Part shown: positions 3,422 through 53,502 of the stretch, in pieces | Position numbering within the stretch: the first letter of the stretch is position 1 | Layout of the letters: each line of letters opens with the position of its first letter | Origin: Dokdonella sp. | GTDB lineage: Bacteria > Pseudomonadota > Gammaproteobacteria > Xanthomonadales > Rhodanobacteraceae | Assembly (NCBI GenBank): GCA_019634795.1 | Contig: JAHCAR010000004.1 | Location: 184,617-248,616 of the forward strand | Direction: 5' to 3' | DNA: 64,000 nt | The notes under the pieces: generated by a model | Seen by the model: the letters and a program-made list of their open reading frames with translations, nothing else | Databases searched by the model: none | Told to the model about the DNA's origin: nothing | Made by a program: the position numbers and the translations under genes

Positions 3422-4107
3422 CCGAAAGCCGTATCCGCCTCGATCCGTCCTGGCGGCAGCGCGTGGGCGACGCGCTGGAAACCCCGCAGATGCGCGAGCT
3501 GGCAACCTTCCTGCGCAGCGAAAAGGCGGCCGGAAAGACGATCTATCCGCCCGGATCGCGGATCTTCGCGGCCCTCGATTCGACCCCGTTCGACGCGGTC
3601 AAGGTGGTCATTCTCGGCCAGGATCCCTACCACGGGCCCGGCCAGGCCCATGGCCTGTGCTTTTCGGTCAGCCCCGGCGTCGCCGTGCCGCCGTCCCTGC
3701 AGAACATCTTCAAGGAGATTTCGCGCGACCTCGACCTGCCGCGTCCGCGGCATGGTGACCTGAGCGCCTGGGCGCGCCAGGGCGTGCTGCTCCTGAACGC
3801 TGTCCTGACGGTCGAGCGCGGCCAGCCCGGATCGCACCAGGGCCTGGGCTGGGAGGGCTTCACCGATGCCTGCATCGAAGCTCTCAACCGTGAACGCGAA
3901 GGCCTCGTGTTCCTGCTCTGGGGCAGCCATGCCCAGGCCAAGGGCCGTCTGATCGATGGCCGCCGGCACCTGGTCCTGAAGGCGCCGCATCCATCGCCGC
4001 TGTCGGCCCACCGCGGATTTCTCGGCTGCGGCCATTTTTCGCGCGCCAATCGCTATCTCGAACAGAACGGGCAGGTCAGCATCGATTGGGGATTGCCGGG
4101 CGACTGA
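3418..4107 (+). CDS. ung: Uracil-DNA glycosylase, family 1
   Basis: A 229-aa base-excision-repair enzyme that removes uracil from DNA. The water-activating motif [18 protein letters not shown] is intact (residues about 63-80), and the second catalytic motif [18 protein letters not shown] carries the leucine-loop histidine. Length and motifs match bacterial Ung. It overlaps the upstream regulator by 4 nt, so it is the last gene of the ftsEX operon. Its 3' end overlaps, tail to tail, the last 55 nt of the converging secreted-protein gene. Confidence 0.96.
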
Positions 4108-4793
4108 GCCGGCGGTGGCCCGTCGAAGCCGCTGCGAAAGACCGTTTCGCTGATGGATACGCGCCAGTTGTCGGCGGTCAGCCGTCCCGTGTTGGTGTAG
4201 GCCTCCGTGGTCGCCATATAGGTCGCGCCCATGAGCAAGCCGAAGCGGATCACGCCGCCGTTGACGCTGAAGTCGGGCGGCCCGTCGTACAAGTCGAAAT
4301 CCTCGGCGGCCAGCTCGAAGGCGTAGGTTTGGGTCGGACCCGGCGTGATCAGCAAGCGGTAACCGGAGAGCGTTACCGAGTTATCCGGCTGGGTCTGGAA
4401 AATGACCAGGATCGGAAACATGCCGCCGAATCCCGAAGGTAGCGAACTGCTGCCCGAGGTCGCAGCATCGATCGACCAGACCACGGAGAACAGTCCGCCG
4501 CGGCTGGCCGGATCGAGCTGCACCGGCGCGCCGGCCGGATCAAGCAGCATCGCTGCCGACTCCGAACCGCCCACGGGCACGTTCCAGACCGCATCGACGA
4601 TTATCGCATTGGACCCCCCGACATCGCCGATCATCCCGCTGGCACTGGCGTTGGCGCTGACGACCGGGACCAGTTGATAGCCGGCAGGCAAGGAATCGAA
4701 ACTCTCGTCGATGAGTACCTGGGAGATCGCGGCACAGGGTGCCATGCCACTGCAAACGGTGACGACGAGGGCCAGGCGCGTAATCAGGTTCAT
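4053..4793 (-). CDS. Secreted protein with FRSGFDG C-terminal motif (module 1)
   Basis: A 246-aa protein of unknown function. I chose the ATG at 4793 because it is followed at once by a signal peptide ([20 protein letters not shown], cleavage near CAAISQ). An upstream in-frame ATG at 4907 would add an Arg-rich, unconvincing leader. The mature part is rich in Gly, Ser, Ala and beta-prone segments, as in carbohydrate-binding or jelly-roll surface proteins. Near its end it carries [11 protein letters not shown], the same tail motif as the secreted proteins at 10576 and 48129. Here about 20 residues follow the motif because the frame runs on into the antisense of ung. It lies divergent from an ECF sigma factor plus kinase, its likely regulators. 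Confidence 0.75.
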
Positions 4794-4848
4794 GAAGTGC
4801 CTCCAGGTTCTGTGGGAATACGAAGTCGGGGAAGTTCGCCGTATCGGT

Positions 4849-4905: not shown

Positions 4906-5022
4906 ATGCATTACGCAAGACGGCGCGATCGGGTCTCATCGCCAGCGCGAAGTTTTCCCGGCGCAGGTTGAAGTGCTATCGTCGGATCCGTGGTCGCCGC
5001 GCCGGCAGCGTTGACGAGGCCA

Positions 5023-5604
5023 ATGAGCGAATCCGACTCGAGCAGGGGAACCGCGCGCTCTGAAATCACCAGCCTGCTGGTGAATTGGCGAAACGGCGAA
5101 AGCGAGGCCCGCGACCGTCTGATTGCGCTGGTCTACGAGGATCTGAGACTCAGTGCCTCGCGCCAGCTTGGCGGCAGTCAGCCGAGCTCGCTGCGCCCGA
5201 CGGCGCTGGTTCATGAGGCGTTCCTCAAGCTCACCGACGGCACGACGGTGCCGTGGCAAAGCCGCGCACATTTCATGGCGGTCGCCGCCCGCGCAATGCG
5301 CCAGGTTGCGATCGACCATGCGCGGCGAAAGGCAGCCGCCAAACGCGACGGCGGCCTCAGGATCACCTTGCAGGATTGCAAGAACGAAACAGTCGCGGAA
5401 GATCTCGACGTGCTCGATCTGCACGTGGCCCTCGAGCGTCTCGCCGGAATCCACCCGGAAAAGGCGCGCATCGTCGAAATGCACTACTTCGGCGGCATGA
5501 GCAGCGAAGAGATCGCCGAAGTGACCGGCCGCGCGACGATCACGATCAAGCGCGGCTGGCGTACCGCGCGGGCCTGGCTGCACCAGCAGATGGTCGGCCC
5601 ATGA
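5023..5604 (+). CDS. ECF sigma factor, kinase-linked type (module 1)
   Basis: A 193-aa sigma-70 family factor of the ECF_sigma/TIGR02999 type, with region 2 (about 15-95) and region 4 (about 120-185, HTH in MSSEEIAEVTGRATITIKRGW). The start is the ATG at 5023 (MSESDSS); a GTG at 4990 is in frame but adds a weak leader. In region 2, where most ECF factors have an acidic DAED motif, it reads LRPTALVHEAFLKL with Thr60 at that place. In described kinase-controlled ECFs (EcfP/PknT of Vibrio, EcfK/PknS of Xanthomonas) the acidic motif is missing and a Thr is phosphorylated to allow core binding. No anti-sigma gene is present. The stop overlaps the kinase start by 4 nt, which supports the same mechanism here. 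Confidence 0.88.
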   Translation: MSESDSSRGTARSEITSLLVNWRNGESEARDRLIALVYEDLRLSASRQLGGSQPSSLRPTALVHEAFLKLTDGTTVPWQSRAHFMAVAARAMRQVAIDHARRKAAAKRDGGLRITLQDCKNETVAEDLDVLDLHVALERLAGIHPEKARIVEMHYFGGMSSEEIAEVTGRATITIKRGWRTARAWLHQQMVGP

Positions 5605-8153
5605 GCGCGCGGTGCGGAGACGATCTCCCGTTGGCATCCGGCGCGGCCACGCAGCTGGCCCGGCGCGCGCTCGACGTGTTCGAGCGTAGCCTCGACGTGG
5701 CGACCGTCGAGCGCCCGGCCTGGGTGCTCGCGGCCTGCGCCGATGACGCAGCGCTACTCGAAGCCGTGCGCAAGTTGCAGCATGCCGATGGCCATGTCGA
5801 TGGCTTCCTCGCCGGCGAGTTCTCGGGTCGTTCGCTGCTGGCGGCCATGGGCAACCGTATCGGCCCCTATCGCCTCGACTGGCTGATCGCGGAGGGCGGC
5901 ATGGGGGCGGTCTATCTTGCCCATCGCGACGACGGTGCCTACCGACAGGATGTCGCGATCAAGCTGATCCGTCCGCTGCTCCTCGATGCCGACCTGATCC
6001 GCCGATTCGAAAGCGAACGCCAGATTCTGGCCCAGCTCAAGCACCCGAACATCGCCCAAATGATCGATGGCGGAACGACGCCGGATGGCACGCCGTTCGT
6101 GGTCATGGAATACATCGAAGGCATGACCATCACCGACTACTGCACTCGACTGCATTTGGGCCTGCGCGCGCGCCTGGACTTGTTTCGCGGCGTCTGTGCG
6201 GCCGTGCAGGCGGCGCATCGGAACCTGATCGTCCACCGCGACCTGAAACCCGGCAACATCCTGGTAACCGCCGACGGCATACCCAAACTGCTCGACTTCG
6301 GCATTGCCAAGATCCTGCAGGCTGGCGATCGCGTCGAGGCCGCGCAGGCCACGGCGCTGGCGTTGACCCCGGAATACGCCAGTCCAGAGCAATTCCAGAA
6401 GCTCGGCGTGACCACGTCCAGCGACGTTTACTCGCTGGGCGTCCTGCTCTACGAGTTGCTCAGTGGGGTCAGACCGTACGCGCTGGAAAACCTGACCCCT
6501 ATGCAGGCTGAGCGCCTGATCTGCCGTGAAGTGCCTGATCCGCCCAGCGCCGCCGTCTTGCAGCGTTCGAGCAGCAGCGAATCGAGGAAGACAGGGCGTG
6601 CCCTGCGCGGCGACCTCGACACGATCACCCTGATGGCCCTGCGCAAGGAGCCCGAACGGCGCTACGGTTCGGTACAGGAATTGTCCGACGACCTTCACCG
6701 CTACCTGCGCGGACTGCCGATCAATGCACGCCGCGACAGCATGCTCTACCGGCTGGGTCGCTTTGGCAGTCGGTATCGATGGGGCTTGGCGGCGGCGTGC
6801 CTTTTGCTCGTGTCGATGCTCGCCGGCATTACTGCGACCAGTTGGCAGGCGCGCCGTGCTCAGGCGCAGGCAGCGCGCGCCGAGACCGAACAGGCCAAGG
6901 CGGAAAACCTCAGCGCGTTTTTCGAGAACATCCTGATGTCGCCGAGCACGCAATGGTTGTCGAAGATCGGCAAGGGGCCGCAGGTGACCATGGCCGAAGT
7001 GCTCGAGATCGCCAGCCAGCGCGCCGACGCCGAGCTGGCCAGTCAACCGGAAACGCATGCCGAAGTGCTCGACACGATCGGCCAGTCCCTGCAAGGCATG
7101 GGCTTGTACGACCAGGCGCGCGACAATGCGGCGCGCGCCGTCGCCATCGCCGACGCTAAATTGCCGAGCACGCATCACTTGCGCGCGGACGCCTACTACC
7201 ACCTGGCTCAGGCGCATCATCTGAAGGGCGAATTCGCGCCCGCGGAACAGGCCTATCGCCATGCCATTGCCGTCGGTGCGGAAATTCTTCCGGCCCGGGG
7301 CGAGACGCTCGCGCTCATGCACAACGATCTCTCGGTCCTGCTCGGCACCACCGCCCGCTTCGCCGAGGCCGAAATCGAGCAGACCGAGGCAATTCGCCTG
7401 CAGCGGCTGCGCATGGGCAGTGAAATCAATCCGCCGATCGCCATCGGTACCGGCAACCTCGGTGCGTTGCGCATGTACCAGGGGGATCTGGAGGGGGCCC
7501 TGTCCGCATTCGATGAAGCATTGGGGATGTTCGCCACCCTGCCCGGCGAAACCTATGTCGAATCGACTTTCGCCCTGCTCAATCGCAGCATCCTGCATTC
7601 GATCCGTGGCAAATTCGAGGAAGCCGGCCGCGATGCCGACAAGGCCCTGGAGATCGGCCGCGAACGCTATGGCGAGGAGCATCCGTTCTATGCACTACTG
7701 ATCCTGCGCGGGGTGGAATCCGGCATTGCCCTGGACCGCATGGCCCAGCTCGATCAGCAGCTCGCTGCGGCCCGGCGCATCTTCGAACAACGGCTCGATC
7801 CCATGCACCCCTACCAGGCTCGACTCCGCCTGGCCGCGGCATCGCTGCACCTGGCCAAGGCCGAGTACGCCGACGCGCGCGACGCGCTGCGCGAAGCCTT
7901 GCGCATCCTCGAGGCGCAAGCCCTGTTCGGCGCACATCCCGACCGCATCCATGCCCGCGTCCTCGCCGAGATGGGCAAGGCCGAACTGCGCCTGGGCCAT
8001 CACGATGTCGCCCGCCCGTTGCTCGAGAAGAGCCTGGAACTCGAGCAGGCCCTGTTCGGTCCCGACGTCGACGAATCGCGGCGCGTGCAAGAACTCCTGC
8101 AGCAAGCCGGTCCATCGGACGGCGCGATGGTTCCTGCTTCGACACGGGAATAA
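5601..8153 (+). CDS. Transmembrane Ser/Thr protein kinase with TPR sensor (module 1)
   Basis: An 850-aa Hanks-type kinase. The ATG at 5601 overlaps the sigma-factor stop (ATGA); the open frame extends further upstream but only as an overlap with the sigma gene. Order of parts: N-terminal helical region often found in ECF-linked kinases (ALDVFERSLDVA...), kinase domain about 85-375 with glycine loop EGGMGAVY, VAIK lysine, catalytic HRDLKPGN, DFG and TPEYASPEQF activation segment, one transmembrane helix (about 394-415, LAAACLLLVSMLAGITA), then a long TPR region (about 480-845) that should be periplasmic. All catalytic residues are present, so it should be active and may phosphorylate the adjacent sigma factor. 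Confidence 0.92.
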   Translation: MSARCGDDLPLASGAATQLARRALDVFERSLDVATVERPAWVLAACADDAALLEAVRKLQHADGHVDGFLAGEFSGRSLLAAMGNRIGPYRLDWLIAEGGMGAVYLAHRDDGAYRQDVAIKLIRPLLLDADLIRRFESERQILAQLKHPNIAQMIDGGTTPDGTPFVVMEYIEGMTITDYCTRLHLGLRARLDLFRGVCAAVQAAHRNLIVHRDLKPGNILVTADGIPKLLDFGIAKILQAGDRVEAAQATALALTPEYASPEQFQKLGVTTSSDVYSLGVLLYELLSGVRPYALENLTPMQAERLICREVPDPPSAAVLQRSSSSESRKTGRALRGDLDTITLMALRKEPERRYGSVQELSDDLHRYLRGLPINARRDSMLYRLGRFGSRYRWGLAAACLLLVSMLAGITATSWQARRAQAQAARAETEQAKAENLSAFFENILMSPSTQWLSKIGKGPQVTMAEVLEIASQRADAELASQPETHAEVLDTIGQSLQGMGLYDQARDNAARAVAIADAKLPSTHHLRADAYYHLAQAHHLKGEFAPAEQAYRHAIAVGAEILPARGETLALMHNDLSVLLGTTARFAEAEIEQTEAIRLQRLRMGSEINPPIAIGTGNLGALRMYQGDLEGALSAFDEALGMFATLPGETYVESTFALLNRSILHSIRGKFEEAGRDADKALEIGRERYGEEHPFYALLILRGVESGIALDRMAQLDQQLAAARRIFEQRLDPMHPYQARLRLAAASLHLAKAEYADARDALREALRILEAQALFGAHPDRIHARVLAEMGKAELRLGHHDVARPLLEKSLELEQALFGPDVDESRRVQELLQQAGPSDGAMVPASTRE

Positions 8154-9943: not shown

Positions 9944-10579
9944 CTACCAACAGCCGAGATAGTAGACGCCGTCGTAGTGCTCAGTGCACACGTCCGCTCG
10001 CATTCCGTCGAGGATCGCCATGTTCGTCTCATGCATGGCGCGGCTGGCCGCGCTGGCGGCGGCCCAGTCCACCGCATCCGGGGCGCCCGCTCCGGAGAGA
10101 ACGCGCTGTGCGTGCCGGATCAATACCCTGGCAATCGCATCCGCATGCGGCCAGCGATAGACCTCGTCCGGCAGGACGCGCACGCGTTTTACCTGACCGT
10201 CTGCGGAAAACACGTACTGGCCAGAGACGTTGAGGCCGTAGCGAAATACGACGTGACCATCTGCGGCCAGGTCGCCGAAATACGCGACAACCCCTTCCGG
10301 ATGGAAGTAGCTGACGCGGCCATCGCGATCCAGGTAGTACAGCGTGCCTTCGGACCCGTCGAACGGACCACTGACGCCCGCCGTCGGATCCACCGCCGGC
10401 AAGCCAGCCGCGCGAGCCCGGGCAACCGTGTTCGCGCGAGGTATCAGTTGCGTGCCGCTCGACCCCGACCTGGACTCGGGCACAGCCGACGCGCCATCGC
10501 GGCCCGCTGCGTCTGCCACGGCGAACACCAGCATCGTTGAGAGAAGGATCTTGGCGCCGATCTTCCCGCTCTCGTTCAT
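9944..10579 (-). CDS. Secreted protein of unknown function (module 2)
   Basis: A 211-aa protein with an N-terminal signal peptide (MNESGKIGAKILLSTMLVFA, cleavage near ADAAG). I do not recognise a family. The mature part has a low-complexity linker and then a segment with two strand-loop repeats reading YYLDRDGRVSYFHPEG and FSADGQVKRVRVLPDE, resembling short beta-propeller or YD-like strands, and a C-terminal part with two Cys (DVCTEHYDGVYYLGCW). It starts inside the end of the 1082-aa secreted protein gene (4-nt overlap) and so shares its transcript and probable sigma-54-like promoter. Confidence 0.7.
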   Translation of the reverse strand: MNESGKIGAKILLSTMLVFAVADAAGRDGASAVPESRSGSSGTQLIPRANTVARARAAGLPAVDPTAGVSGPFDGSEGTLYYLDRDGRVSYFHPEGVVAYFGDLAADGHVVFRYGLNVSGQYVFSADGQVKRVRVLPDEVYRWPHADAIARVLIRHAQRVLSGAGAPDAVDWAAASAASRAMHETNMAILDGMRADVCTEHYDGVYYLGCW

Positions 10580-13500
10580 CGAGACTTCTCCTGCCCGTTC
10601 GACGACGAGTCGAAGCCGTTGCGGAAAATGATGTCGTTGGGATCCGGGGGCGGCGTGAGTGGGAAGGAAATCGGTGCCCCGTTGTCTTCGTCGAAGGCCG
10701 TCGCGTCGCGGTAGGCCTGAACGATGACGTCACCGGGCGCACCGCTGCCCGTCCATGTTGCGGTGAGAAGGGCCGTATACGGCGTGCGAAGCGGCAACAT
10801 GCCGTTGCCATGCGTGAGCGTGATCCGGTTGTCGGCGCTGCTCGTGAAGGCGGCATCACACGGCAGGTTTCCGCGGCGGCAGCCTACCTGGCTGATCTGC
10901 ATGCCGACCGGCAACGTGATGTCGGCCGTGAATCCGTTCGACTGGCTCGGTCCGAGATTGCTGATGTCGACCTCGAGTGAGAGCTCGTTGCCCTGCCAGC
11001 GTTGCCTTTGCGCGGTTGCCCGGATGTGGGTGATGCGCAGGACGGGCATCTGCAACTGCACGCTGTCGTTGTCCGGATTATTGTCGCGTGTTCCGCCGAT
11101 GGCGGCGGGGACGCTGCTGCGTCCGTTGACGACCAGGGTCCCGTCGCCAGCGAGCTCGGTCAGGGTTCCGGTCGCGAAGAAGGTCGCCGTTCCGCCGACG
11201 GGAAGGCTCAGGCCCGCGTCGATCTCGCTGCCGAGGCACGCGCCGAAGCAACCGATCGCGGGCGTGCAACTTCCGCCTGCCGTCGTGCTGCATCCCCACG
11301 CCGGGTTTTCGATCGCATCGGTCAGTCCGGTCGGGAGGCTGGCCCGGAATCGTCCGTTGCCGGTCGCCGACGGCCCATTGTTGGTCACCGTCCACGTGAT
11401 GTTCACGCCGTCTCCGCCGACGGCCTCGCCGGTGCCGCCGACCAGCGGGTTGGTCGATTGACCGCTGACTGCGACCGAAAGATCAGATACTCCCGGCACG
11501 GTCGCACTGCAGTCGAGGTCGAGCGACCAGTCGAGCAAATGACCGCTGTCACCGCTGGCCAGATCTTCGATCTTCAGCGTCCACAGCCCGCTGGAATCGA
11601 TGCCATCGTTTCCGGTCGTGCGCCGGCCGAGCAACGCGGACAACGGATGGGCCGGAATGATGTCGCCGGACAATGCCGGCAGATCGACCGGCACGCGGCA
11701 GCTGGTCTGCGCGTCGATCGCGGCACCATCATCGAAGCTGGCAACGATGTCCCGCCCGGTACAACTGCCGATGCCTGCACCTGCGGACGCTGCGGGCCGG
11801 TCGAGCAGGGTCACGATGCCCTCGCTTCCCCCGACGAACACCTGGCCATTCGGATCGGTCAACGTGATACGCAGGTCTCCGATGTAGGTATGCTCGATGT
11901 CGACGCCGACACGGATGGCATCCACGTAATTGCAGCTGCCCGCATTGACGAAGTTGATGCTGCTGCTGACCGAGCCCTGGTCCGGAATCGGCGCCGTGCA
12001 ATGGCTGTTGAGGCCGCCTTCGCTGCAGCGCGCGCCAGGCAACGCCGGCCGGTTGGCACTGACGACGAAGTCGGCACGCTTGCGTGCGCCGAGCGAGTCC
12101 CAACTGTTGTGTGCGCGAATGCCGCCGACGAACAGCGAAGCGGTGGCATCGGCACCGGTGCTCGTCGGTGCCGCGACACGCAGTTGCAGCCAATCTCCGT
12201 TCTTGACCCAGCGCGGGCGATCGGACCACGGTTCAAAGCCAACCCGCATCTGCCCACCGAGCACGTAAGCCGGCACGCTCAGCCCGGCATCCAGGCCGCT
12301 GATCTGGCGAAACTCCGACTCGGCAAGGGCATTGGGTCGCGCGCTCGCCGCAGGAAAGCTCAAGGCGTCGGGGTCGGTGTCCCAGGGAGACGTGCCGAAG
12401 GTATCGCCGACGAACTGGGTCAGCATCGGGTAGGTGGCGTGATGGCTCGGGGCACCCGATGGGGGCGAATCGATGTAGCTTCCGAGCACGACGATCCGAC
12501 CGTTTCGCTGCACCATCACGTCCTCGGCCTCGAAGACGGAAGGCTCGATGCAGTCGGGACTCGGCGTCAGCGAGACCGGTTCCCAGTCAAACTGTCCGTC
12601 GCCGTCGAATCCGGTATCCGCCTGCAAGGTGCCGGCCGTCGTGCGCACAAGGTGCAGGCGACGCTGGGCGTGCGGGCTGCCGAGGCTCGCGCTGCAGGCT
12701 CCGCCGTATTCGCGTTGGACGCTGAGAACCAGACTCTTGCCATCCGGCGCGAGGGTTGATGCGCCCACGCCGAGGTCGAACAAGGGGCCGCGGGCTGGCA
12801 GGAACGTCGTCTCAAGACCGGTGCTGCCGTCCACGTTGCGGTTCCACGCCGTCACTCCGAAGCGACCGTTCTGGTCGGTCGTCCGTGTGAGTCCGAGGCG
12901 TATCCTGCCGGTCGGATCGATATCGATCTGGTCGGCTGCACGCGGAAAGCCGTCAACGTCATTCTGATCGATGCTGTGCGGAATCAGCTTCGGCGCACCG
13001 AAGGTCTGATCAAACTGCCCTTCCGGCGTCAGGGCCACCAGCCACAGCACACTCGGATGAAGGTTCTCGGTACCGGCATCACCGAGATAGGCGCCGACCA
13101 TCACGACGATGCCGAGCCCCGGCTGCTCGGCGACGGCCGTGGCCCGGGTCGGCTCGTATTCAACCGGACCCCATGCGTCGAGCAGCACTTCGTTCAGCGA
13201 CTGGCCATCCGCATCGAGAAACTTCGCGACCGGCTTGCTGAGGTAGCCTCCATCGAGAGTCGAGCCGACCATTACGGTCCGACCATCCCCGAGCAGCTCG
13301 AGGGCATAGCAGTGGCTCGGTCCGTAGCTCTGGATGCCCGAGCCACTGCCCCAGTTCGGATCGAGCACCCCGTCCGCGTCCACCCGAGCCGCGACACCCT
13401 GCGGTCCGGCATCGGTATAGCGATCACCGCAGATCAGGGCGCTACCATCGGGAAGCGCGACCAGGTCATTGATCGCCATGCGCAGGTCACCGAGTGTGGA

Positions 13501-13824
13501 CGCACCGGTTCCCTGCCCGCCGTAGCTCGCAACCGGTTGCCCGGTGACGGCCGAGACGCGACCGATCAGGGCTCTTGGATGCTTGATGGGAGACCACTCC
13601 GGCTCGTTCCAGTCGGTACCGGCTACGAGCAGCGTAGCGCCGGGGGAAGGCGCGACCTGACGCAAGACCCGCGCATACTCCGCATCGCCTTGCGCGGGAA
13701 AAATCGGTGCCAGTTCGCCATCGCTATCAAATGCGACGTCGAACTGGGTGGATTGGGCATGGACGCCGAGAACGGCGCTCATCATTGACAACGACAGCAA
13801 GAAGCGCGGAAGTGAGCGAATCAT
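10576..13824 (-). CDS. Large secreted multidomain protein with FRNGFD tail (module 2)
   Basis: A 1082-aa secreted protein. The start used is the ATG at 13824 (MIRSLPRFLLSLSMMSAVLG, a signal peptide ending at HAQ). ATGs at 13875 and 13851 lie at or upstream of the predicted transcription start. Parts in order: delta-60-type repeats (units such as DADGVLDPNWGSG and TPEGQFDQTFG) over about the first 480 residues, a linker, a proprotein-convertase P-type beta-sandwich (about 640-790, DLRITLTDPNGQ and SGLWTLKIED), two DUF11-like repeats, and the tail IIFRNGFDSSSNGQEKSR. It is probably exported to the surface or medium. It is divergent from an FHA-domain activator that is its likely regulator. Confidence 0.85.
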   Translation of the reverse strand: MIRSLPRFLLSLSMMSAVLGVHAQSTQFDVAFDSDGELAPIFPAQGDAEYARVLRQVAPSPGATLLVAGTDWNEPEWSPIKHPRALIGRVSAVTGQPVASYGGQGTGASTLGDLRMAINDLVALPDGSALICGDRYTDAGPQGVAARVDADGVLDPNWGSGSGIQSYGPSHCYALELLGDGRTVMVGSTLDGGYLSKPVAKFLDADGQSLNEVLLDAWGPVEYEPTRATAVAEQPGLGIVVMVGAYLGDAGTENLHPSVLWLVALTPEGQFDQTFGAPKLIPHSIDQNDVDGFPRAADQIDIDPTGRIRLGLTRTTDQNGRFGVTAWNRNVDGSTGLETTFLPARGPLFDLGVGASTLAPDGKSLVLSVQREYGGACSASLGSPHAQRRLHLVRTTAGTLQADTGFDGDGQFDWEPVSLTPSPDCIEPSVFEAEDVMVQRNGRIVVLGSYIDSPPSGAPSHHATYPMLTQFVGDTFGTSPWDTDPDALSFPAASARPNALAESEFRQISGLDAGLSVPAYVLGGQMRVGFEPWSDRPRWVKNGDWLQLRVAAPTSTGADATASLFVGGIRAHNSWDSLGARKRADFVVSANRPALPGARCSEGGLNSHCTAPIPDQGSVSSSINFVNAGSCNYVDAIRVGVDIEHTYIGDLRITLTDPNGQVFVGGSEGIVTLLDRPAASAGAGIGSCTGRDIVASFDDGAAIDAQTSCRVPVDLPALSGDIIPAHPLSALLGRRTTGNDGIDSSGLWTLKIEDLASGDSGHLLDWSLDLDCSATVPGVSDLSVAVSGQSTNPLVGGTGEAVGGDGVNITWTVTNNGPSATGNGRFRASLPTGLTDAIENPAWGCSTTAGGSCTPAIGCFGACLGSEIDAGLSLPVGGTATFFATGTLTELAGDGTLVVNGRSSVPAAIGGTRDNNPDNDSVQLQMPVLRITHIRATAQRQRWQGNELSLEVDISNLGPSQSNGFTADITLPVGMQISQVGCRRGNLPCDAAFTSSADNRITLTHGNGMLPLRTPYTALLTATWTGSGAPGDVIVQAYRDATAFDEDNGAPISFPLTPPPDPNDIIFRNGFDSSSNGQEKSR

Positions 13825-13857
13825 GGGGAGCATCGACGTATTGAGGTACATGGTGTA

Positions 13858-13875
13858 TTCCAAGACCCGTGCCAA
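13858..13875 (-). promoter_or_regulatory. Sigma-54 (-24/-12) type promoter for the module 2 secreted operon
   Basis: Read on the minus strand: TTGGCACG, four bases, TTGGAA. This matches the sigma-54 consensus TTGGCACG-N4-TTGC at every position but the last (G for C in the -12 GC). The predicted transcription start is near 13848, 24 nt before the ATG at 13824. The adjacent divergent gene codes for a sigma-54-type activator, and two palindromes lie at the usual upstream distance. Confidence 0.78.
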
Positions 13876-13914
13876 GACGAAACCCGTTTATTATCAGTGT
13901 GCTATGTTCAATCG

Positions 13915-13930
13915 GTTCGCAAATGCGAAC
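13915..13930. promoter_or_regulatory. Palindromic activator site, proximal copy
   Basis: GTTCGCAAATGCGAAC, a 16-bp near-perfect palindrome (6-bp arms GTTCGC/GCGAAC). Its centre is about 75 bp upstream of the predicted sigma-54 start and it is repeated 44 bp further on, as expected for tandem enhancer sites of an enhancer-binding protein. Confidence 0.75.
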
Positions 13931-13958
13931 GCGGCATCATCCAGTCTGGGTCATTCGG

Positions 13959-13974
13959 GTTCGCAAACGCGAAC
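13959..13974. promoter_or_regulatory. Palindromic activator site, distal copy
   Basis: GTTCGCAAACGCGAAC, differing at one position from the copy at 13915. Centre-to-centre spacing is 44 bp, close to four helical turns, so dimers would bind the same DNA face. It lies 25 bp before the GTG start of the activator gene, so it could also mediate autoregulation. Confidence 0.75.
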
Positions 13975-13998
13975 CGAGACGCTAGGCTGGAGCCCCGA

Positions 13999-15741
13999 GT
14001 GAACTGGGTTGTAGGCATGGAGCGGATTCGCGTTCATCTGGAAGTCCTCGAGCCGGACGGCATCGAGTTGTCGCGACGGCAACTGGACGTGGGCCGCTAC
14101 CGGCTGGGACGAGGCGCGGAGTGCGAGATCCGCGTCCAGCTGAACGGCCTCTCGCGCGAGCACGTGCTGCTCGAAGTCCTGCCTTCGGGCGGTATCGTTG
14201 TCGAGGATCTCGGCTCCACCAATGGCACCCTCATTGACGGCCTCGCCGTTGCAAAGTCTGCAATCAGGCACGAAGCAGCGCTGAAGGCCGGCCCGCTGCT
14301 GCTGCGAATCTGCGAAGCCGACACCCGGCTCGATGGGCTGGCTTACCGTACGGGAGAGGAGATCCACGCCTCGCCCCTCCCGGCAATCGCCGACGAGCGA
14401 ACGCAATCGCAATCCCTCCGCGAACGGCTGCGCGAATCGTTGTGGGGACCGGCGGCATCGTGGGAGAGCGCCTTGGCCAGGCGTATTCCGGCCCTCTGCG
14501 ACGTGCTCGGCATCAATGCCTTGCAACTGGTCCGAGTCGGACACGCGGATTCCGCGATCGTCGTTGCATCTGCGGGGGCACCGGCTGACGCGCCAGAGAC
14601 GCTCGCCGAGGACGGGCGTTATGCGCTGCAGGCACCAGCAGGCACCTCGCAACGCCAGGTCGGCCTGCGCGAGCATGCGCTCGTCTGGCTTTCGTGGCTG
14701 CCGAATCCCGTGCCGACGCAGGCATCCGATCCTGCAAACCAGGTCGCACGACCAGCCCTGGCGGGTGTCGCGACGGCCGATCCGGTATTGCGACGACAGA
14801 TGGATGCGCTGGCACGCGTCGCGCGCAGTCGCGTTGCCGTCCTGCTGCTCGGCGAAACCGGAGTCGGCAAGGACGTGGTGGCGCGCTGGATCCACGCGTG
14901 CTCGCCGCGCGCCAGCGGTCCCTTCGTCGCGATCAACTGCGCGGCACTGCCCAGGGATCTGCTCGAAGCCGAACTGTTCGGCGTCGAAAAGGGCGCCGCG
15001 ACCGGTGTCAGCGAACGACCGGGGGTATTCGAACGCGCTGACGGAGGGACGCTCTTTCTCGACGAACTGGGCGACATGCCGCCCGAGACCCAGGTTCGCC
15101 TGCTGCGTGCTCTCGAAGACGGTCGCATCCATCGGCTCGGTGGACGCTCACTGATCGACGTCGACGTGCGTCTGGTCAGTGCCACCCATCGCGATCTCCA
15201 GGACGCCGTGGAAGTCGGCTCCTTCCGCCTCGACTTGTTCCATCGACTTGCCGGATTCGAGGCGCGGCTTCCGCCGTTGCGCGAACGTCGCATCGACATC
15301 TCGCCGCTCGCCATCCATTTCTTCCACGAAGCCTTGTCGGAAACGGGCGTGCGCAGTCCCGGCATGACCGCAGCGGCATTGTGCGACCTGCAGGCGGCAG
15401 ACTGGCCTGGAAACGTGCGCGAACTGCGTCAGGTCATGCACGGCGCGACGGCGCTGCTGAGCAATGGTGATGCCCTGGATCGACAGCACCTGCCTCGGCG
15501 CCTGCGCGGCGCCGGGAGCGCGAATCCGCCGGATGCCTGCGAGATCGGCCGATTCGAACCGACCCCGCTGGCCGAGGCGATCGCGCGGGCCGAACGTCGC
15601 ACCATCGAACAAGCCATCGAAGCGACCGGAGGTGACGCCGAGCGGGCCTGGTCCCTGCTCGGCATAGGCAAGACGACGTTCTATAAGAAGCTCAAGGAAC
15701 ATGGGATCGGACGGGCGGAAGGCGGGGCCAGCGGACAGTGA
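13999..15741 (+). CDS. FHA-domain sigma-54-type enhancer-binding protein (module 2)
   Basis: A 580-aa regulator from the GTG at 13999 (GGAG lies 7 nt upstream); an ATG at 14017 (MERIRVHLEV) is an alternative start. Domains: FHA (about 7-100) with the phospho-Thr-binding signatures GRGAECEI, LSREH and LGSTNGT; a linker with a short GAF-like portion; an AAA+ domain (about 255-490) with Walker A GETGVGKD, Walker B GGTLFLDELGDM and arginine-finger region; a C-terminal Fis-type HTH (AWSLLGIGKTTFYKKLKEHG). The sigma-54-contacting GAFTGA loop reads GAATGV (about 332-337), lacking the usual Phe. The FHA domain suggests control by a Ser/Thr kinase; the next gene, overlapping by 4 nt, encodes one. Confidence 0.9.
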   Translation: MNWVVGMERIRVHLEVLEPDGIELSRRQLDVGRYRLGRGAECEIRVQLNGLSREHVLLEVLPSGGIVVEDLGSTNGTLIDGLAVAKSAIRHEAALKAGPLLLRICEADTRLDGLAYRTGEEIHASPLPAIADERTQSQSLRERLRESLWGPAASWESALARRIPALCDVLGINALQLVRVGHADSAIVVASAGAPADAPETLAEDGRYALQAPAGTSQRQVGLREHALVWLSWLPNPVPTQASDPANQVARPALAGVATADPVLRRQMDALARVARSRVAVLLLGETGVGKDVVARWIHACSPRASGPFVAINCAALPRDLLEAELFGVEKGAATGVSERPGVFERADGGTLFLDELGDMPPETQVRLLRALEDGRIHRLGGRSLIDVDVRLVSATHRDLQDAVEVGSFRLDLFHRLAGFEARLPPLRERRIDISPLAIHFFHEALSETGVRSPGMTAAALCDLQAADWPGNVRELRQVMHGATALLSNGDALDRQHLPRRLRGAGSANPPDACEIGRFEPTPLAEAIARAERRTIEQAIEATGGDAERAWSLLGIGKTTFYKKLKEHGIGRAEGGASGQ

Positions 15742-48128: not shown

Positions 48129-50138
48129 TCAGGGGCCGTCGAAGCCATCCGCAAAGATCGTGTCGGAGATGCCGAACGCCATCGGTGGCGAAAATTCGGA
48201 AGTGCTGCCGATGCCGCCGCCGTCGGTCGCGGTCATGACAAGATGACCTCCCGTCGTGCCGATCGGCAGGTTGAACGACTTGAGGGTCGCGACATTGGGA
48301 GCGATGGCGAAGTCGGATCCGATGTACGTGGCACCCTCGCCGCTGCCCTCGCTGTCGGCAAGGTAGAAATCGGCATAGATTGCGTATGCGGAGTTGGACG
48401 TCGCGGAATCGATGGTCCACTCCAGGGCCAGTTGCGGCGGGATCGCTGCGGGATTGAACGTGGCGGCAAGAACTACCGGATAGTTCTGCAGCTTGTTGGG
48501 CCCAACATCCGCGTCTCCTGAATCGTTGGGTGTCGGGCCATCACCGAGCAGGTCGATGCCGATGCCGACATTGGAGAAGATGGAATTGGAGTAGATGGCG
48601 CTGCCGTTTCCGCTGTCCACCAGGACCACCCCGTTGCCGCCATTGAAGGCGATCGAGTTGGCGACGACGCTCGCCGCGGACCCGATGCCTAAGATGGCGA
48701 CACCGTCGAGGTCGTTGCCGATGTTGCGACCGTCCGCTGTCACGCCGATGAAGTTGCCGGTAATACCGCTGCCATTGCCCTCCACACGGATTCCGTCACC
48801 GCCGGAAAAGCCGATCGAGTTGCCCGCGCCACCGAATCCTATGGCGCTGTTTGATGAGTGCACATGAATTCCGCTTCCATCGTTTCCGAAATTCGTTATT
48901 CCACCCACCGCAAAGTCGAGAAAACCGATCGTATTCGAGGTCACCTCGGTTGAATCACCACCGACATCGATGCCGTCCGCGCCGCTGTTTAGTACCTGAT
49001 TGGAGGTGACGACATTGTTGCTGCCACCTGCGATGCGTATGCCATCGCCGGCATTTCCCTGCGAAAAGGCGGCGACACCAACCCGGTTCCCGGCGATCTC
49101 GTTGCCATCGCCGTCGATTGCAATGCCAACGGTGTTGTTGGCAACTTCGTTGTAACCATTGGTGTCGGTGGAGCCGACAGTATTGCCGTCACCGATGAGT
49201 GTGATACCGATGCCGGCGTTTCCCCTCGCCGACCCATTGACGGCAATGCCAATCGAATTCGCGACGATCCGGTTGCCGGACCCGGCAATCCGGATCGCGT
49301 CACCGCTGTTTCCGGAAATCACGTTGCCATAGTCGTTGGCGGAGTTGAACGTGCCGATGACGTTGTTGTTGGCGGCAAATCCAAGAATGCCTACGCCGTT
49401 GCCCCGCGCGCCGATGCCAGCGGGTGTGGTGCCAATGCGGTTGCCGGCAATGACGTTGTTTGTGGCCACACCCAGGGATATGCCGCTGTCGATGTTCGCC
49501 GAGATGACATTGCCGAAGAATCCGCTGGCAAAGCGGCCGATGAAGTTGCTGTCGGAGCCGATGAATATGCCCTGACCGTTGCCGGCCGCGCTGCCATCGG
49601 CCAGAACACCAACGTAGCACGAGTCGACGAGGAGCGAATTGACGCCGGTACCGATACTGATTCCGGTTCCGAATCGGACCACTCCGATCGCCCTGACCCC
49701 GCTGCCGGACGCAGCATTGCCAACGAATCTGAGGCCGCGCGCGCTGCCGCCTGCCCCGCCAACGAACTGGCCGTTGAGATACACCTTCGGCGGTGCATTC
49801 TCGAGCTGGATGCTGGGGCCGACGTAACCCGGCGCAGTCGTGCCATCGATGTCGAGGGGACCGGTGATCGCAGGAAGCTCGCCCTGCGAAGCGGAAAGCG
49901 TGAGAGTCCCCGCGATGCCGAACTGGATGCTGTCCAGACCTGGATGCGCATTCGCCTCCTCGACCGCGGCGCGCAGGCTGCAGTCGCCGAACGCGGTGGC
50001 GCAGACCCCATTTCCGGGGTTCACGTCGTGGTCGTCGAACGTGTTATCGATAGAGAACGTCGCGGCTGTGGCGGCGGTCGGAAGCAATACCGGTGCGAGC
50101 AGTATCAAGAGTATCGTTGCGAGGATTCCAGGGCTCAT
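48129..50138 (-). CDS. Secreted beta-helix protein with CSLREC domain and FADGFDGP tail (module 3)
   Basis: A 669-aa secreted protein; start ATG at 50138 (MSPGILATILLILLAPVLLP signal peptide). A CSLREC domain lies near the N-terminus (NGVCATAFGDCSLRAAVEEA). A right-handed parallel beta-helix follows, built of Asn/Gly-rich repeats such as NVISGNSGDAIRIAGSGNRI from about residue 120 to 560, and then a beta-sandwich-like part. It ends exactly at TIFADGFDGP, the tail motif shared with the secreted proteins of modules 1 and 2. It is divergent from an ECF sigma and kinase pair, its likely regulators. Confidence 0.88.
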   Translation of the reverse strand: MSPGILATILLILLAPVLLPTAATAATFSIDNTFDDHDVNPGNGVCATAFGDCSLRAAVEEANAHPGLDSIQFGIAGTLTLSASQGELPAITGPLDIDGTTAPGYVGPSIQLENAPPKVYLNGQFVGGAGGSARGLRFVGNAASGSGVRAIGVVRFGTGISIGTGVNSLLVDSCYVGVLADGSAAGNGQGIFIGSDSNFIGRFASGFFGNVISANIDSGISLGVATNNVIAGNRIGTTPAGIGARGNGVGILGFAANNNVIGTFNSANDYGNVISGNSGDAIRIAGSGNRIVANSIGIAVNGSARGNAGIGITLIGDGNTVGSTDTNGYNEVANNTVGIAIDGDGNEIAGNRVGVAAFSQGNAGDGIRIAGGSNNVVTSNQVLNSGADGIDVGGDSTEVTSNTIGFLDFAVGGITNFGNDGSGIHVHSSNSAIGFGGAGNSIGFSGGDGIRVEGNGSGITGNFIGVTADGRNIGNDLDGVAILGIGSAASVVANSIAFNGGNGVVLVDSGNGSAIYSNSIFSNVGIGIDLLGDGPTPNDSGDADVGPNKLQNYPVVLAATFNPAAIPPQLALEWTIDSATSNSAYAIYADFYLADSEGSGEGATYIGSDFAIAPNVATLKSFNLPIGTTGGHLVMTATDGGGIGSTSEFSPPMAFGISDTIFADGFDGP

Positions 50139-50209
50139 GAGAGGTGTCCGTGGCCGAAAGGGGCTTCCAGCGGCAGTACCGCAGGCCCTCCATTCATCGC
50201 AATCCGGCA

Positions 50210-50860
50210 ATGAATCGGGACAGCTCCTGGTCGAATGTCGAGTCGGCTGCGGGTCTACAATCGGGATCAACCTCATCCGCAGGGATCGGGCAAGGCGCCT
50301 TGGACGAGATCACGCTACTGCTTCAGCGCGCGCGCAACGGCGAGCCCGAGCAGCTTGACCGCGTCTTCGCCGCGCTCTACATGGAACTGCGGCGAGTCGC
50401 CGAATCGCGCCTCGGTAGCGGTTGCCAGACGCTGACGCCCACCGCACTCGTGCACGAAGTGTTTCTCACGTTGCGCGGCAACGAGAGCCTGAACCTGAAC
50501 GACCGCCGGCACTTCTTCGCCTGCGCGGCGCGCTCCATGCGCTGCATCGTTGTCGACCATGCGCGCCGGCGCAGCGCGGACCGCCGTGGGGGCGGCGCCA
50601 CGCCAGTGACCCTCCAGGAAGGACTGCTCGGCGGCACCGACAACCCCGACAGCAACTTGATCAGCCTGGATCAGGCACTCGATCGCCTCGACCGCTTCGA
50701 TCCGCGCCAGCGCCAGATCGTCGAGCTGCATTTCTTTGCCGGGCTCACCTTCGCCGAAATCGGCGCATTGCTCGAATGCTCCGATCGCACGGCCAAGCGC
50801 GACTGGGAGCGCGCCCGGGTATTCCTGCACGCGGAGCTCGAGCAGGATCGGACTCAATGA
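50210..50860 (+). CDS. ECF sigma factor, kinase-linked type (module 3)
   Basis: About 216 aa from the ATG at 50210; a TTG at 50300 would give a shorter form starting at LDEITLLLQRARNG, closer to the module 1 factor, and a GTG at 50144 a longer one. Regions 2 and 4 are of the ECF_sigma/TIGR02999 type (region 4 HTH in LTFAEIGALLECSDRTAKRDW). The acidic motif of region 2 is again replaced by LTPTALVHEVFLTL. The stop overlaps the kinase start by 4 nt (ATGA). No anti-sigma factor is present. Confidence 0.85.
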   Translation: MNRDSSWSNVESAAGLQSGSTSSAGIGQGALDEITLLLQRARNGEPEQLDRVFAALYMELRRVAESRLGSGCQTLTPTALVHEVFLTLRGNESLNLNDRRHFFACAARSMRCIVVDHARRRSADRRGGGATPVTLQEGLLGGTDNPDSNLISLDQALDRLDRFDPRQRQIVELHFFAGLTFAEIGALLECSDRTAKRDWERARVFLHAELEQDRTQ

Positions 50861-53502
50861 ACCAGGACGAGACCGCTCTTGTTCGCCGCGCAGCCGAGCT
50901 CTTTGATCACCTGCTCGACCTGCCGGATGACGAGCGCGACGGAGCCATCGATCGCCTGGCCGACACCCCCGCGTTGGGTCGCCGCCTGCGGCGACTGCTG
51001 AAACTGCACCGGGAACCCGGCATCCTCGACAGCGCCGCGCTGCACACGGCGGCGGTGCCGACCCGAATCGGCAGCTGGACCATCCTCGGTGAAATCGGCC
51101 GCGGCGGAATGGCCGTCGTCTATCGTGCCGAACGGTCACTTGGCGAATCCACCCAGGTCGCGGCACTCAAGGTCCTGACAGTCGGAGCCCTGGCCGCCAA
51201 TGGTCGCGAAGGGTTCTTGCGCGAGCAGGCGATCCTGGCCCGCCTGGATCACCCGCACATCGTCGGCCTGCTGGATGCCGGGGTCCTCGACGACGGGACA
51301 CCGTGGCTGGCGATGGCTCTGGTCGATGGCGAACGCATCGACACCTGGTGCGACCAGCGGGCGCGTGATACCCGCGAAATCGTCACGCGCTTTCTCGACA
51401 TCTGTTCGGCGGTCGCCTATGCGCATCGGAACCTGGTCGTGCACCGGGACCTGAAACCATCCAACATCCTGGTCGACAGCGAGCGCCGAGTGCGTCTCCT
51501 CGATTTCGGAATCGCGAGACTGCTCGAGGACAGCGGCGACGACGCTACCGCGACCGCCTTCCGCGCCCTGACGCCGCGCTACGCGGCGCCGGAACAGTTC
51601 GGCAGCGAGCCGACGACCACGCTGACGGACATATTCGGTCTCGGCGCGGTCCTCTATGCCCTATTGGCAGGCCGGCCACCACGCGACACCGCCTCGAGTC
51701 CGCAACAAGCCATCGGCTGGCCATCTCGCTCGGCGCGGGCCAATGATCAATGGCCGCCAGCCCAGCGCCGCCAGCGCGCCCGCGAACTCCACGGCGATCT
51801 GGACACCATCGTATTGAAGGCACTGGCGCCGGAACCGAACCGACGCTACCCCACGGTGGAGGCACTCGCCGCCGACCTGCGGGCATGGCTCGAGCATCTT
51901 CCGATTTCGGCGCGGCCTGCCTCGGCGTGGTATCTCGCCAGCCGCTTCGTGCGCCGAAACCGGCTTGTCGTCGCAACCGCGGTGGCAGCGCTCGCCCTGA
52001 GCACGCTATCGGTATGGCAGGTGGTGCTTGAACGCAATCGCGCCGAGGCGCAGGCAAAGCGCGCGACCGAAGTGCGGGATTTTCTCGCTGAAGTGTTTTC
52101 CTCTGCCGAGCCATCGAAGGGCCCGATTCCGAGCCTGCTCGATGTGCTCGACGAGGGCTCGCGGCGTGCCCGCGAGGAATTGTTGCTGACGGCACCGCTG
52201 GCTGCGGCAGATGTACTGACGATCACCGGCGGCACCTATCTGGATTCGGGCGTTCTGGAAAAATCCGCGACCGACCTGGCCGAGGCGCGCGACATCCTCG
52301 AAGAAACACAGCCGAGGCCGGCAGCCGAACTGTCCCGCGTATACACCACGCTCGGCATGCTTGCCCGGCGCCGCGGTGACAACGAACGTTCCCTCGATGA
52401 TTTCGGAAAGGGGCTGTCCTATGCGAAGCAGTCCGGCGCACCGGCGCAGGCCATCCTGCGCATTGAAGTTTCGATGTCGGCAACCGAGAACAACGCAGGG
52501 AGGCCGGCCGAGGCAGAAGTCACCTTGCGCAAATTGCTCCGCGAAATCAGGGCGCATGAACTCTCCGATACCCCCCTGCACCTGGACGCTCTCAATGCCC
52601 TCGGAACGTCGCTTGCGCTGCAAAAGCGCGCCTATCCGGAGCAGGCGGCTCTGCACGAGCAGCGCCTGGCCGTGACTCGCGCGCTCTACGGCACCGAAAA
52701 CGGCTGGTACGCGTACGCGCTGGCCGATGCCGTGCCGACGTTTCGCAAGGCCGGCCAGATTGCGCGCGCGGAAAGCCTGGCTCGCGAGTCGACGGCCATT
52801 GCGGACCGGCTCTATTCCGCACCGCACATCTTTGCGTCCGTCGCCTACTGCAATCTGGCCGCCCTGCTCCAGCACGAGGGCAAATTGGCCGAGGCGCTCG
52901 CGGCCAGCAATCGCAATATCGGCATGGACGAAGCGATGAAGCGCGCCGACCCCCACGCCGAATCGTGTCGGCGCAGTCGCGCCTACCTGCGCGCCGCACT
53001 CTCGGATTACCCGGCCGCACTGTCGGATCTGGCTGTCGACCGTTCCCTGCTGGAGCAACTCGGCAAGCAGCATTCGACGTTGTGGATGGCGAATTGCGGC
53101 CTGGAAGCTTCGATATGGGTCCGCAGCAACGAGGTATCCCGGGCAGAGGAACATCTCTCGCGCTGCTCGGGCGGACATTCGCCGAATCCGTCCGCAAAGG
53201 TCGATGAGTTCGATCTGGCGCGCGTGGAGATTGCCCTGGCCAGAAACGACGGGCGCGAGGCCGAAGAATGGCTCACTGGCTTGCGCGACCGCCTGCCACC
53301 CGATCCTTCTTCGCGCGCCTGGCTCAGGCCCTGGCTATTGTCCGTGCTGGCAGCAGATGCCGCGGACGACCGGAAACTTCACGAGCGCCTGGTATCGGCC
53401 ATCCGATCGATTCGACCGGTACCCGGCATGGCGGATCTGTCCGTCATCGAACCCTGCCTTGCCGACCGGGCCGATGTCGCATCCTGCATGATATTGCCGT
53501 GA
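50857..53502 (+). CDS. Transmembrane Ser/Thr protein kinase with TPR sensor (module 3)
   Basis: An 881-aa kinase from the ATG at 50857. N-terminal helical segment (ELFDHLLDLPDDERDGAIDR), kinase domain about 70-345 with IGRGGMAVVY, AALK lysine, HRDLKPSN, DFG and TPRYAAPEQF. Transmembrane helix about 369-390 (VVATAVAALALSTLSVW), then TPR-like repeats to the end with several Cys near the C-terminus. All catalytic residues are present. Its architecture and gene order copy module 1. Confidence 0.92.
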   Translation: MNQDETALVRRAAELFDHLLDLPDDERDGAIDRLADTPALGRRLRRLLKLHREPGILDSAALHTAAVPTRIGSWTILGEIGRGGMAVVYRAERSLGESTQVAALKVLTVGALAANGREGFLREQAILARLDHPHIVGLLDAGVLDDGTPWLAMALVDGERIDTWCDQRARDTREIVTRFLDICSAVAYAHRNLVVHRDLKPSNILVDSERRVRLLDFGIARLLEDSGDDATATAFRALTPRYAAPEQFGSEPTTTLTDIFGLGAVLYALLAGRPPRDTASSPQQAIGWPSRSARANDQWPPAQRRQRARELHGDLDTIVLKALAPEPNRRYPTVEALAADLRAWLEHLPISARPASAWYLASRFVRRNRLVVATAVAALALSTLSVWQVVLERNRAEAQAKRATEVRDFLAEVFSSAEPSKGPIPSLLDVLDEGSRRAREELLLTAPLAAADVLTITGGTYLDSGVLEKSATDLAEARDILEETQPRPAAELSRVYTTLGMLARRRGDNERSLDDFGKGLSYAKQSGAPAQAILRIEVSMSATENNAGRPAEAEVTLRKLLREIRAHELSDTPLHLDALNALGTSLALQKRAYPEQAALHEQRLAVTRALYGTENGWYAYALADAVPTFRKAGQIARAESLARESTAIADRLYSAPHIFASVAYCNLAALLQHEGKLAEALAASNRNIGMDEAMKRADPHAESCRRSRAYLRAALSDYPAALSDLAVDRSLLEQLGKQHSTLWMANCGLEASIWVRSNEVSRAEEHLSRCSGGHSPNPSAKVDEFDLARVEIALARNDGREAEEWLTGLRDRLPPDPSSRAWLRPWLLSVLAADAADDRKLHERLVSAIRSIRPVPGMADLSVIEPCLADRADVASCMILP

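What the first reader, a model, noticed from the sequence alone, without database searches (positions are those of the whole stretch)
4053..53502. Three copies of one divergent plan: secreted GFD-tail protein facing a regulator plus TPR-kinase
Seen directly: at 4053-8153, 9944-18425 and 48129-53502, a minus-strand gene for a signal-peptide protein ending in F-x-x-GFD faces a plus-strand pair whose members overlap by 4 nt, a transcription regulator then a Ser/Thr kinase with one transmembrane helix and a TPR region. Regulators are ECF sigma (two loci) and FHA-type activator (one). Known: ECF sigma factors controlled by a neighbouring Ser/Thr kinase (EcfP/PknT, EcfK/PknS). Inferred: each kinase senses something in the periplasm and switches on its own secreted protein, and the shared tail gives these proteins a common export or anchoring route. 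I do not recall a description linking these modules to a common tail.
Basis: partly seen in the sequence, partly recalled or inferred. Interest (0 to 1): 0.88.

Follow-up and report, generated by a model that had tools for sequence, protein, structure and literature searches.

The report
Kinase switches beside tail-tagged secreted proteins
In one order of bacteria, a short tag near the end of secreted proteins keeps turning up next to a kinase-controlled gene switch, which suggests that each switch looks after the tagged protein beside it and that the tag may be an unrecognised delivery label.

Summary
Three minus-strand genes for secreted proteins with F-x-x-GFD near the C-terminus each face a regulator plus TPR-kinase pair overlapping by 4 nt (two ECF43-like sigma factors, one FHA-sigma54 activator).

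The association is general in this order (unnamed; Lysobacterales inferred). With a tail model that allows dialects (GFD/E, DFE, GFQ, DRFE), 37 of 67 ECF-kinase pairs in five relatives have a tail gene within two genes; nearby genes carry the tail in 48 of 259 cases against 22 of 567 elsewhere in the same stretches (OR 5.6). The strict motif alone gives 15 of 67 (OR 2.8). In the window's genome 12 of 16 regulator-kinase pairs have one. Across 121 genomes tail and ECF counts correlate (Spearman 0.79). Four of five FHA-kinase loci fetched from relatives also have a tail gene within two genes.

Weaker points: 'facing' is only the commonest layout, and a promoter-sharing test was negative, so control of the neighbour is inferred. 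The tail resembles a sorting or secretion tag but has no membrane helix; sortase, exosortase and over-cut-off rhombosortase were not found in this genome or two tail-rich relatives. The scanned Pfam and NCBIfam hits do not cover the window's tails.

The parts
4053..4793 (-). Locus 1 secreted protein with tail FRSGFD, 22 residues before the stop (ORF listed as 4053-4907; likely start at 4793, [11 protein letters not shown]...)
   Evidence: no Pfam or NCBIfam hit
4122..4139 (-). Tail motif FRSGFD of locus 1
   Evidence: position worked out
4990..5604 (+). Locus 1 ECF sigma factor, ECF43-like; sigma2.2 reads LRPTALVHE with the Thr before Ala kept
   Evidence: PF07638 and TIGR02999; motif read from the sequence
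5601..8153 (+). Locus 1 membrane Ser/Thr kinase with TPR region
   Evidence: Pkinase and TPR_12; hydrophobic stretch read from the sequence
9944..10579 (-). Small protein with a signal-peptide-like start, overlapping the end of the locus 2 tail gene by 4 nt; no tail
   Evidence: no Pfam hit
10576..13875 (-). Locus 2 secreted protein (delta-60, P-domain, DUF11 regions) with tail FRNGFD, 10 residues before the stop
10609..10626 (-). Tail motif FRNGFD of locus 2
   Evidence: position worked out
13897..15741 (+). Locus 2 regulator: FHA domain, sigma54 activator AAA domain, HTH_8
   Evidence: 53% identical relatives in G037 and G014
15738..18425 (+). Locus 2 membrane Ser/Thr kinase with TPR region
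48129..50138 (-). Locus 3 secreted CSLREA/beta-helix-like protein with tail FADGFD, 2 residues before the stop (ORF listed as 48129-50276)
   Evidence: CSLREA_Nterm and para_beta_helix hits are below their cut-offs
48138..48155 (-). Tail motif FADGFD of locus 3
   Evidence: position worked out
50144..50860 (+). Locus 3 ECF sigma factor, ECF43-like; sigma2.2 reads LTPTALVHE (start codon uncertain)
   Evidence: PF07638 and TIGR02999
50857..53502 (+). Locus 3 membrane Ser/Thr kinase with TPR region
   Evidence: Pkinase and TPR_12

Best explanation
These are three copies of a recurrent regulatory module. A membrane Ser/Thr kinase with a periplasmic TPR sensor activates the regulator encoded with it: an ECF43-like sigma factor by phosphorylating the conserved sigma2.2 Thr, or an FHA-sigma54 activator that can read phospho-Thr. 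The activated regulator controls, among other targets, the neighbouring gene for a secreted, mostly beta-rich protein. That protein carries a C-terminal tag, consensus D-x-[IL]-F-x-[DN]-G-F-[DE] with genus dialects, which marks it for a late step of secretion or surface delivery shared with dozens of other tagged proteins of the genome. Shown here: module anatomy, tail, enrichment of tail genes beside the modules, genome-level co-occurrence, and the same plan in relatives for both module types. Taken from published work on relatives: kinase-to-sigma phosphorylation. Inferred: control of the neighbour, and the sorting role of the tail.
For: Own genome: 12 of 16 regulator-TPR-kinase pairs have a tail gene within two genes, 10 of them with the strict motif; the other 11 kinases examined have none. 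Relatives: 37 of 67 pairs; 48/259 near genes against 22/567 elsewhere, OR 5.6, p 2e-11; among genes with a signal-peptide-like start 32/101 against 12/146. Independent control stretches of G031: 13/302 against 18/75, p 9e-7. Divergent slots are richer than convergent ones (14/32 against 4/35). On a tree of 81 sigma factors the tail-neighbour label is scattered (24 changes against 26 in shuffles), and one supported group keeps it in 6 of 6 members over four genera. FHA type: tail gene within two genes at 4 of 5 loci fetched. 121 genomes: Spearman 0.79 between tail and ECF counts; 60 have both, 47 neither. Tail as tag: follows unrelated architectures; 20-119 copies in many genomes and none in others of the same family. 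Kinase-sigma phosphorylation and a periplasmic TPR in X. citri PknS: passages of PMC8999054 and PMC13147305.
Against: No direct evidence of regulation: in divergent ECF-tail intergenic regions (n=13) the two sides share no more sequence than in other divergent regions (n=203; 13.5 against 14.1, p 0.79). The strict motif alone gives a weak signal in relatives: 31 matches against 22.2 expected within about 8 kb, p 0.045; 16/259 against 13/567, OR 2.8, p 0.006. G002 (2 of 9 pairs) and G036 (1 of 5) show little even with the tolerant model. Four of 16 own pairs lack a tail gene. Some genomes have ECFs without tails (6 of 121, for example G053, G007) or tails with few ECFs (8 of 121, for example G098, G117). 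The tail is also found internally or just after the signal peptide in a few proteins.
Confidence: 0.5

Rival explanations
1. Genomic co-residence only: tail-tagged secreted proteins and ECF-kinase pairs are both lineage-specific expansions that accumulate in the same variable regions and become neighbours without a regulatory link.
For: Both families expand together across genomes; layouts are varied, convergent ones included; no shared promoter signal; genes with signal-peptide-like starts in general are enriched near pairs (101/259 against 146/567).
Against: Tails are enriched near pairs even among genes with signal-peptide-like starts (32/101 against 12/146; 13/33 against 6/74 in control stretches); divergent slots exceed convergent ones; the exact window plan of the FHA locus is kept in two other families.
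Confidence: 0.25
2. The TPR domain of the kinase itself reads the aromatic-acidic tail of its neighbour in the periplasm, so the module senses export of its own tagged protein.
For: The closest solved structures by sequence for two of the kinases' TPR regions are kinesin light chains, whose TPRs bind aromatic-acidic peptides, in one case through the free C-terminal carboxylate (passages of PMC6214655).
Against: In the one kinase aligned, read by eye, the peptide-holding Asn pairs of three KLC helices keep 1 of 6 Asn, and the carboxylate-binding Lys is not kept. In many tagged proteins residues follow the motif, so it is not the free end. A published relative, PknS, works beside a type VI secretion region rather than a tail gene.
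Confidence: 0.1
3. The tail is a structural end piece or the remnant of a longer domain, not a sorting tag.
For: Two acidobacterial proteins (L193, L239) carry a longer form with GFESGTT..WS, which recalls the start of jelly-roll domains (recalled, not tested). The motif also occurs internally before linkers and after signal peptides.
Against: In this order it mostly stops within a few residues of the C-terminus (18 of 30 unselected matches within 11 residues of a stop), behind unrelated architectures, in bulk or not at all per genome.
Confidence: 0.15

Closest known systems
ECF43 sigma factor + Hanks-type kinase pairs (EcfP/PknT of Vibrio parahaemolyticus, EcfK/PknS of Xanthomonas citri)
   Same: Sigma factor and Ser/Thr kinase encoded together; sigma2.2 acidic motif replaced, with the Thr before Ala kept; kinase domain, one TM, periplasmic TPR as in PknS (passages).
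   Different: Described targets are polymyxin resistance and a type VI secretion system; no tail-tagged neighbour is mentioned in the passages seen. Here there are 10 to more than 20 such sigma factors per genome in many genomes.
FHA-domain sigma54 activators
   Same: FHA, sigma54 AAA domain and HTH_8.
   Different: Encoded with a TPR-kinase and a tail gene, a plan kept in G037 and G014. That FHA domains bind phospho-Thr is recalled knowledge.
C-terminal sorting signals (LPXTG, PEP-CTERM, GlyGly-CTERM, MYXO-CTERM)
   Same: Short shared C-terminal piece on many unrelated exported proteins; many copies per genome in some genomes, none in others.
   Different: No transmembrane helix and basic cluster after the motif; sortase, exosortase and over-cut-off rhombosortase not found in G000, G031 or G110.
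Choice-of-anchor Q domain proteins (NF041518)
   Same: In one tail protein (L082) the domain ends about where the tail begins; that such domains precede sorting signals elsewhere is recalled.
   Different: Of nine tail proteins scanned only one passes the cut-off; two others match near the C-terminus below it.

Membership tests
ECF43 sigma factors with a kinase partner | ECF sigma factor encoded next to a Ser/Thr kinase | tested here: met
   Loci 1 and 3, 4-nt overlap
ECF43 sigma factors with a kinase partner | sigma2.2 acidic residues replaced, phospho-acceptor Thr kept | tested here: met
   LRPTALVHE and LTPTALVHE, read against the motif given
ECF43 sigma factors with a kinase partner | Placement in group ECF43 by the ECF classification | not tested
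   Only PF07638 and TIGR02999 were run
ECF43 sigma factors with a kinase partner | Kinase phosphorylates the sigma factor | not testable with these tools
   Needs biochemistry
Known C-terminal sorting signals (sortase, exosortase, rhombosortase types) | Motif followed by TM helix and basic cluster | tested here: not met
   0-22 residues follow the motif in the window and unselected own tails; none hydrophobic enough for a helix, read
Known C-terminal sorting signals (sortase, exosortase, rhombosortase types) | Cognate enzyme present wherever the signal is | tested here: not met
   PF09721, PF04203 and over-cut-off TIGR03902 not found in tail-rich G000, G031, G110
Known C-terminal sorting signals (sortase, exosortase, rhombosortase types) | Many copies in some genomes, none in related ones | tested here: met
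   121 genomes
Kinesin-light-chain-like TPR peptide readers | TPR sequence similarity | tested here: met
   KLC1 and KLC2 are the top matches, E 7e-8 (locus 1) and 0.001 (locus 3); locus 2 not searched
Kinesin-light-chain-like TPR peptide readers | Groove residues that hold an aromatic-acidic peptide | tested here: inconclusive
   Mostly not kept in the one kinase aligned, by eye

The most novel reading that the evidence does not exclude
This order of bacteria (and, in a longer form, perhaps some Acidobacteria) runs an undescribed C-terminal tag system without membrane anchor (D-x-I-F-x-D-G-F-E and dialects), with its own machinery for delivering dozens of beta-rich proteins outside the cell. 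Kinase-regulator pairs act as per-protein governors of it, each sensing the envelope state or the export of its own tagged neighbour and setting its expression.
Probability: 0.25. Interest if true: 0.9.

Novelty: new variant of a known kind. Interest (0 to 1): 0.7.

Why it matters
ECF-kinase pairs of this kind number 10 to more than 20 per genome in many of these bacteria, and few targets are known; the finding gives them a concrete predicted target class. It also defines a C-terminal tag, absent from the models scanned, whose presence-absence profile over genomes can be used to look for its machinery. Both claims are directly testable in culturable relatives.

Tried and rejected
Strict motif only: weak association in relatives. 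Reading the neighbours' ends showed dialects; the tolerant model recovered the association. That model was trained on 56 strict tails of the same genomes, near-pair ones included, and its threshold came from shuffled C-termini (about 3 false hits expected), so it is not a blind test. The control stretches were not used in training.

Gene calling: my first two callers were misled by antisense ORFs and under-called tail genes in relatives, giving weaker results; the caller was retrained on kinase and sigma genes plus 14 window genes. It still misses the locus 1 tail gene, which overlaps its neighbour; I set that one by hand for the tree and in the 12-of-16 count.

Idea that near-pair tails are more variable than others: dropped, because 8 of 13 tails in control stretches are variants too, two of them with low scores.

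Promoter sharing: looked positive for divergent loci, but there the two sequences are each other's reverse complement; a matched null removed it. In the same test ECF regions without a tail neighbour (n=21) scored above the null (15.9 against 14.1, p 0.007), unexplained.

TPR reads tail: groove residues mostly not kept in the kinase aligned. Known sorting enzymes: do not fit. Literature: searches for the tail letters listed only unrelated papers in the rows shown (3, 15 and 15 of 3, 787 and 74); wider searches listed nothing linking such a tail to these modules. The library lacks most subscription papers. Papers were seen as search listings, plus passages of PMC8999054, PMC13147305, PMC6214655 and PMC3237569. 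Organism names: the one named scan may leave out the window's own species. No structure prediction was run.
Full report
What is in the window. The window holds just three ORFs with F..GF[DE] within 60 residues of the stop, and each faces a regulator-kinase pair overlapping by 4 nt. Outside the tail the three secreted proteins hit different families: locus 1 none, locus 2 delta-60, P-domain and DUF11 regions, locus 3 CSLREA and beta-helix models below their cut-offs. The kinases keep HRD (HCD at locus 2) and DFG motifs, one hydrophobic stretch and a TPR region (read from the sequence; domains).

How common the tail is in this genome. F..GF[DE] has 144 DNA matches against 21 for the reversed pattern. 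The first 30 matches in contig order came as loci; 18 of them are C-terminal tails within 11 residues of a stop. By extrapolation that is some 80-90 tail genes, so the tail is not private to these modules.

Own-genome test. I fetched stretches round 27 of the 28 kinase hits (three of them in the window; the one on a 3-kb contig was left out) and 14 control stretches of 20 kb. The first caller found 28 strict tail genes among 603 genes, 3 of them in the control stretches. Counting the FHA locus, and the C11 locus where tail genes lie between kinase and sigma factor, there are 16 regulator-TPR-kinase pairs. Ten have a strict tail gene within two genes and two more a variant tail (FCDGFG at C17, FCTPFE at C2): 12 of 16. 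The four without are at C17:15.2k, C49, C50 and C8. The other 11 kinases have none within two genes, strict or tolerant. The automatic count, which leaves out the FHA and C11 loci and misses the locus 1 tail gene, is 9 of 14.

Relatives. Stretches round PF07638 hits of G031 (same genus), G110 and G012 (same family), G002 and G036 (other families) were fetched, taken from the listed hits and not by their neighbours; not every listed hit was fetched. With the strict motif the signal was weak: 31 matches against 22.2 expected from genome density; 15 of 67 pairs, and 16/259 near genes against 13/567, OR 2.8, p 0.006. Reading the neighbours showed dialects of the same tail such as DDFE, DRFE, GFQ and GLE. 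A 10-position model with a threshold from shuffled C-termini found 103 tail genes among 1599 genes, about 3 expected false. With it, pairs with a tail gene within two genes are: own 9/14, G031 14/20, G110 13/17, G012 7/16, G002 2/9, G036 1/5. Pooled relatives: 37/67 pairs; 48/259 near genes against 22/567, OR 5.6, p 2e-11; among genes with a signal-peptide-like start 32/101 against 12/146. Kinases without an ECF partner in these stretches: 3 of 11 have a tail gene within two. Twenty control stretches of G031 gave 13/302 against 18/75. These Fisher tests treat genes as independent, which they are not fully.

Layout and recurrence. Over 75 same-strand pairs, tail genes fill 14 of 32 adjacent divergent slots, 10 of 38 adjacent downstream same-strand slots, 9 of 43 upstream same-strand slots and 4 of 35 convergent slots; 31 of 73 adjacent pairs overlap by 4 nt. 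On a quick tree of 81 sigma factors the label needs 24 changes (26 in shuffles; at least 10 forced by well-supported branches), so it is scattered. One supported group keeps it in six of six members over four genera; in five of the six the tail protein has a similar FDxIxLE-type end.

FHA type. Of 24 listed matches to the window's FHA activator in ten genomes, I fetched the five that span most of the query. The two closest, 53% identical, in G037 and G014 of two other families, have the window's plan exactly: tail gene on minus, FHA activator then kinase on plus. Two more distant ones have a tail gene within two genes in other layouts; the fifth, in G002, has none, but its kinase lies at the contig end: 4 of 5.

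Genome level. Over 121 genomes of the order the tolerant tail pattern gives 2061 matches against 21 for the reversed pattern by my addition, with 20-119 copies in many genomes and 0-2 in others. Tail and ECF counts correlate with Spearman 0.79 over 121 genomes and 0.79 over 56 genera; 60 genomes have both, 47 neither, 8 tails only, 6 ECFs only, at cut-offs of 5 and 4 that I chose afterwards. With the strict pattern the values are 0.68 and 0.80. In G037 the strict motif counts 0 but the tolerant one 53, and its tails read IFxxRFE.

Named genomes. In the 80 best ECF loci, strict tail ORFs lie beside the ECF in two of five loci named as Lysobacterales, Lysobacteraceae or Xanthomonadales (L203, L214), and a longer form within about 5 kb of it in two acidobacterial loci (L193, L239) of the 75 others. 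Five further strict-pattern ORFs were a second copy in L214 and four that look unrelated.

What the tail may be. It follows unrelated architectures. In one protein it comes directly after a choice-of-anchor Q domain, a place where, as I recall, other bacteria put sorting signals. It lacks a TM helix and basic cluster. Exosortase (E 1e-8) and sortase (E 1e-6) were not found in the tail-rich G000, G031 and G110, and rhombosortase only below its cut-off. It is not always terminal: a few proteins have it internally or just after the signal peptide, which I cannot explain.

Mechanism. Passages of PMC8999054 and PMC13147305 say that EcfP and EcfK are activated by phosphorylation by PknT and PknS, and that PknS has a cytoplasmic kinase domain, one TM helix and periplasmic TPRs. 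Both window sigma factors keep the Thr of the motif. I infer that these modules do likewise and that the neighbouring tail gene is among the targets. The promoter test gave no support, so this step is unproven. A sensor in which the TPR reads the tail is attractive because the closest solved TPRs are kinesin light chains, but the groove residues are mostly not kept in the one kinase aligned.

Verdict. The tail deserves a family model and a profiling search for its machinery.

Noticed in passing
window 18592-19189 and 19263-19771; 9756-9848: A degenerate partial copy of the 3' part of a priA-like gene (name recalled) lies beside that gene (pieces of 138 and 246 nt, 74% identical), and a 93-nt piece 95% identical to the end of the small gene 9390-9881 sits at its edge.
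   Followed up: partly
L082 3159-5861 (-), own contig C4: A protein ends in an IPTL-CTERM-like tail with TM helix and basic end (label recalled), although no exosortase was found in this genome at E 1e-8.
   Followed up: no
own C1:111390-112832 (in L073) and L022: The tail-like motif stands just after the signal peptide instead of at the C-terminus.
   Followed up: no
window 53630-55948 and L128 8745-11057: A malic-enzyme-like gene (name recalled) adjoins the ECF-kinase/tail locus both in the window (locus 3) and in G110, in a different order.
   Followed up: no
L193 4969-7209 (-) and L239 15146-17797 (-): Acidobacterial proteins near ECF loci end in a longer form, IFEDGFESGTTGNWS and LFADGFESGTTSAWS, perhaps the ancestral shape of the tail.
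   Followed up: partly
G012 and G037 loci (L146-L164, L285-L290, L303, L305): Genus dialects of the tail: GFQ endings in G012, RFE/RFQ endings in G037.
   Followed up: partly
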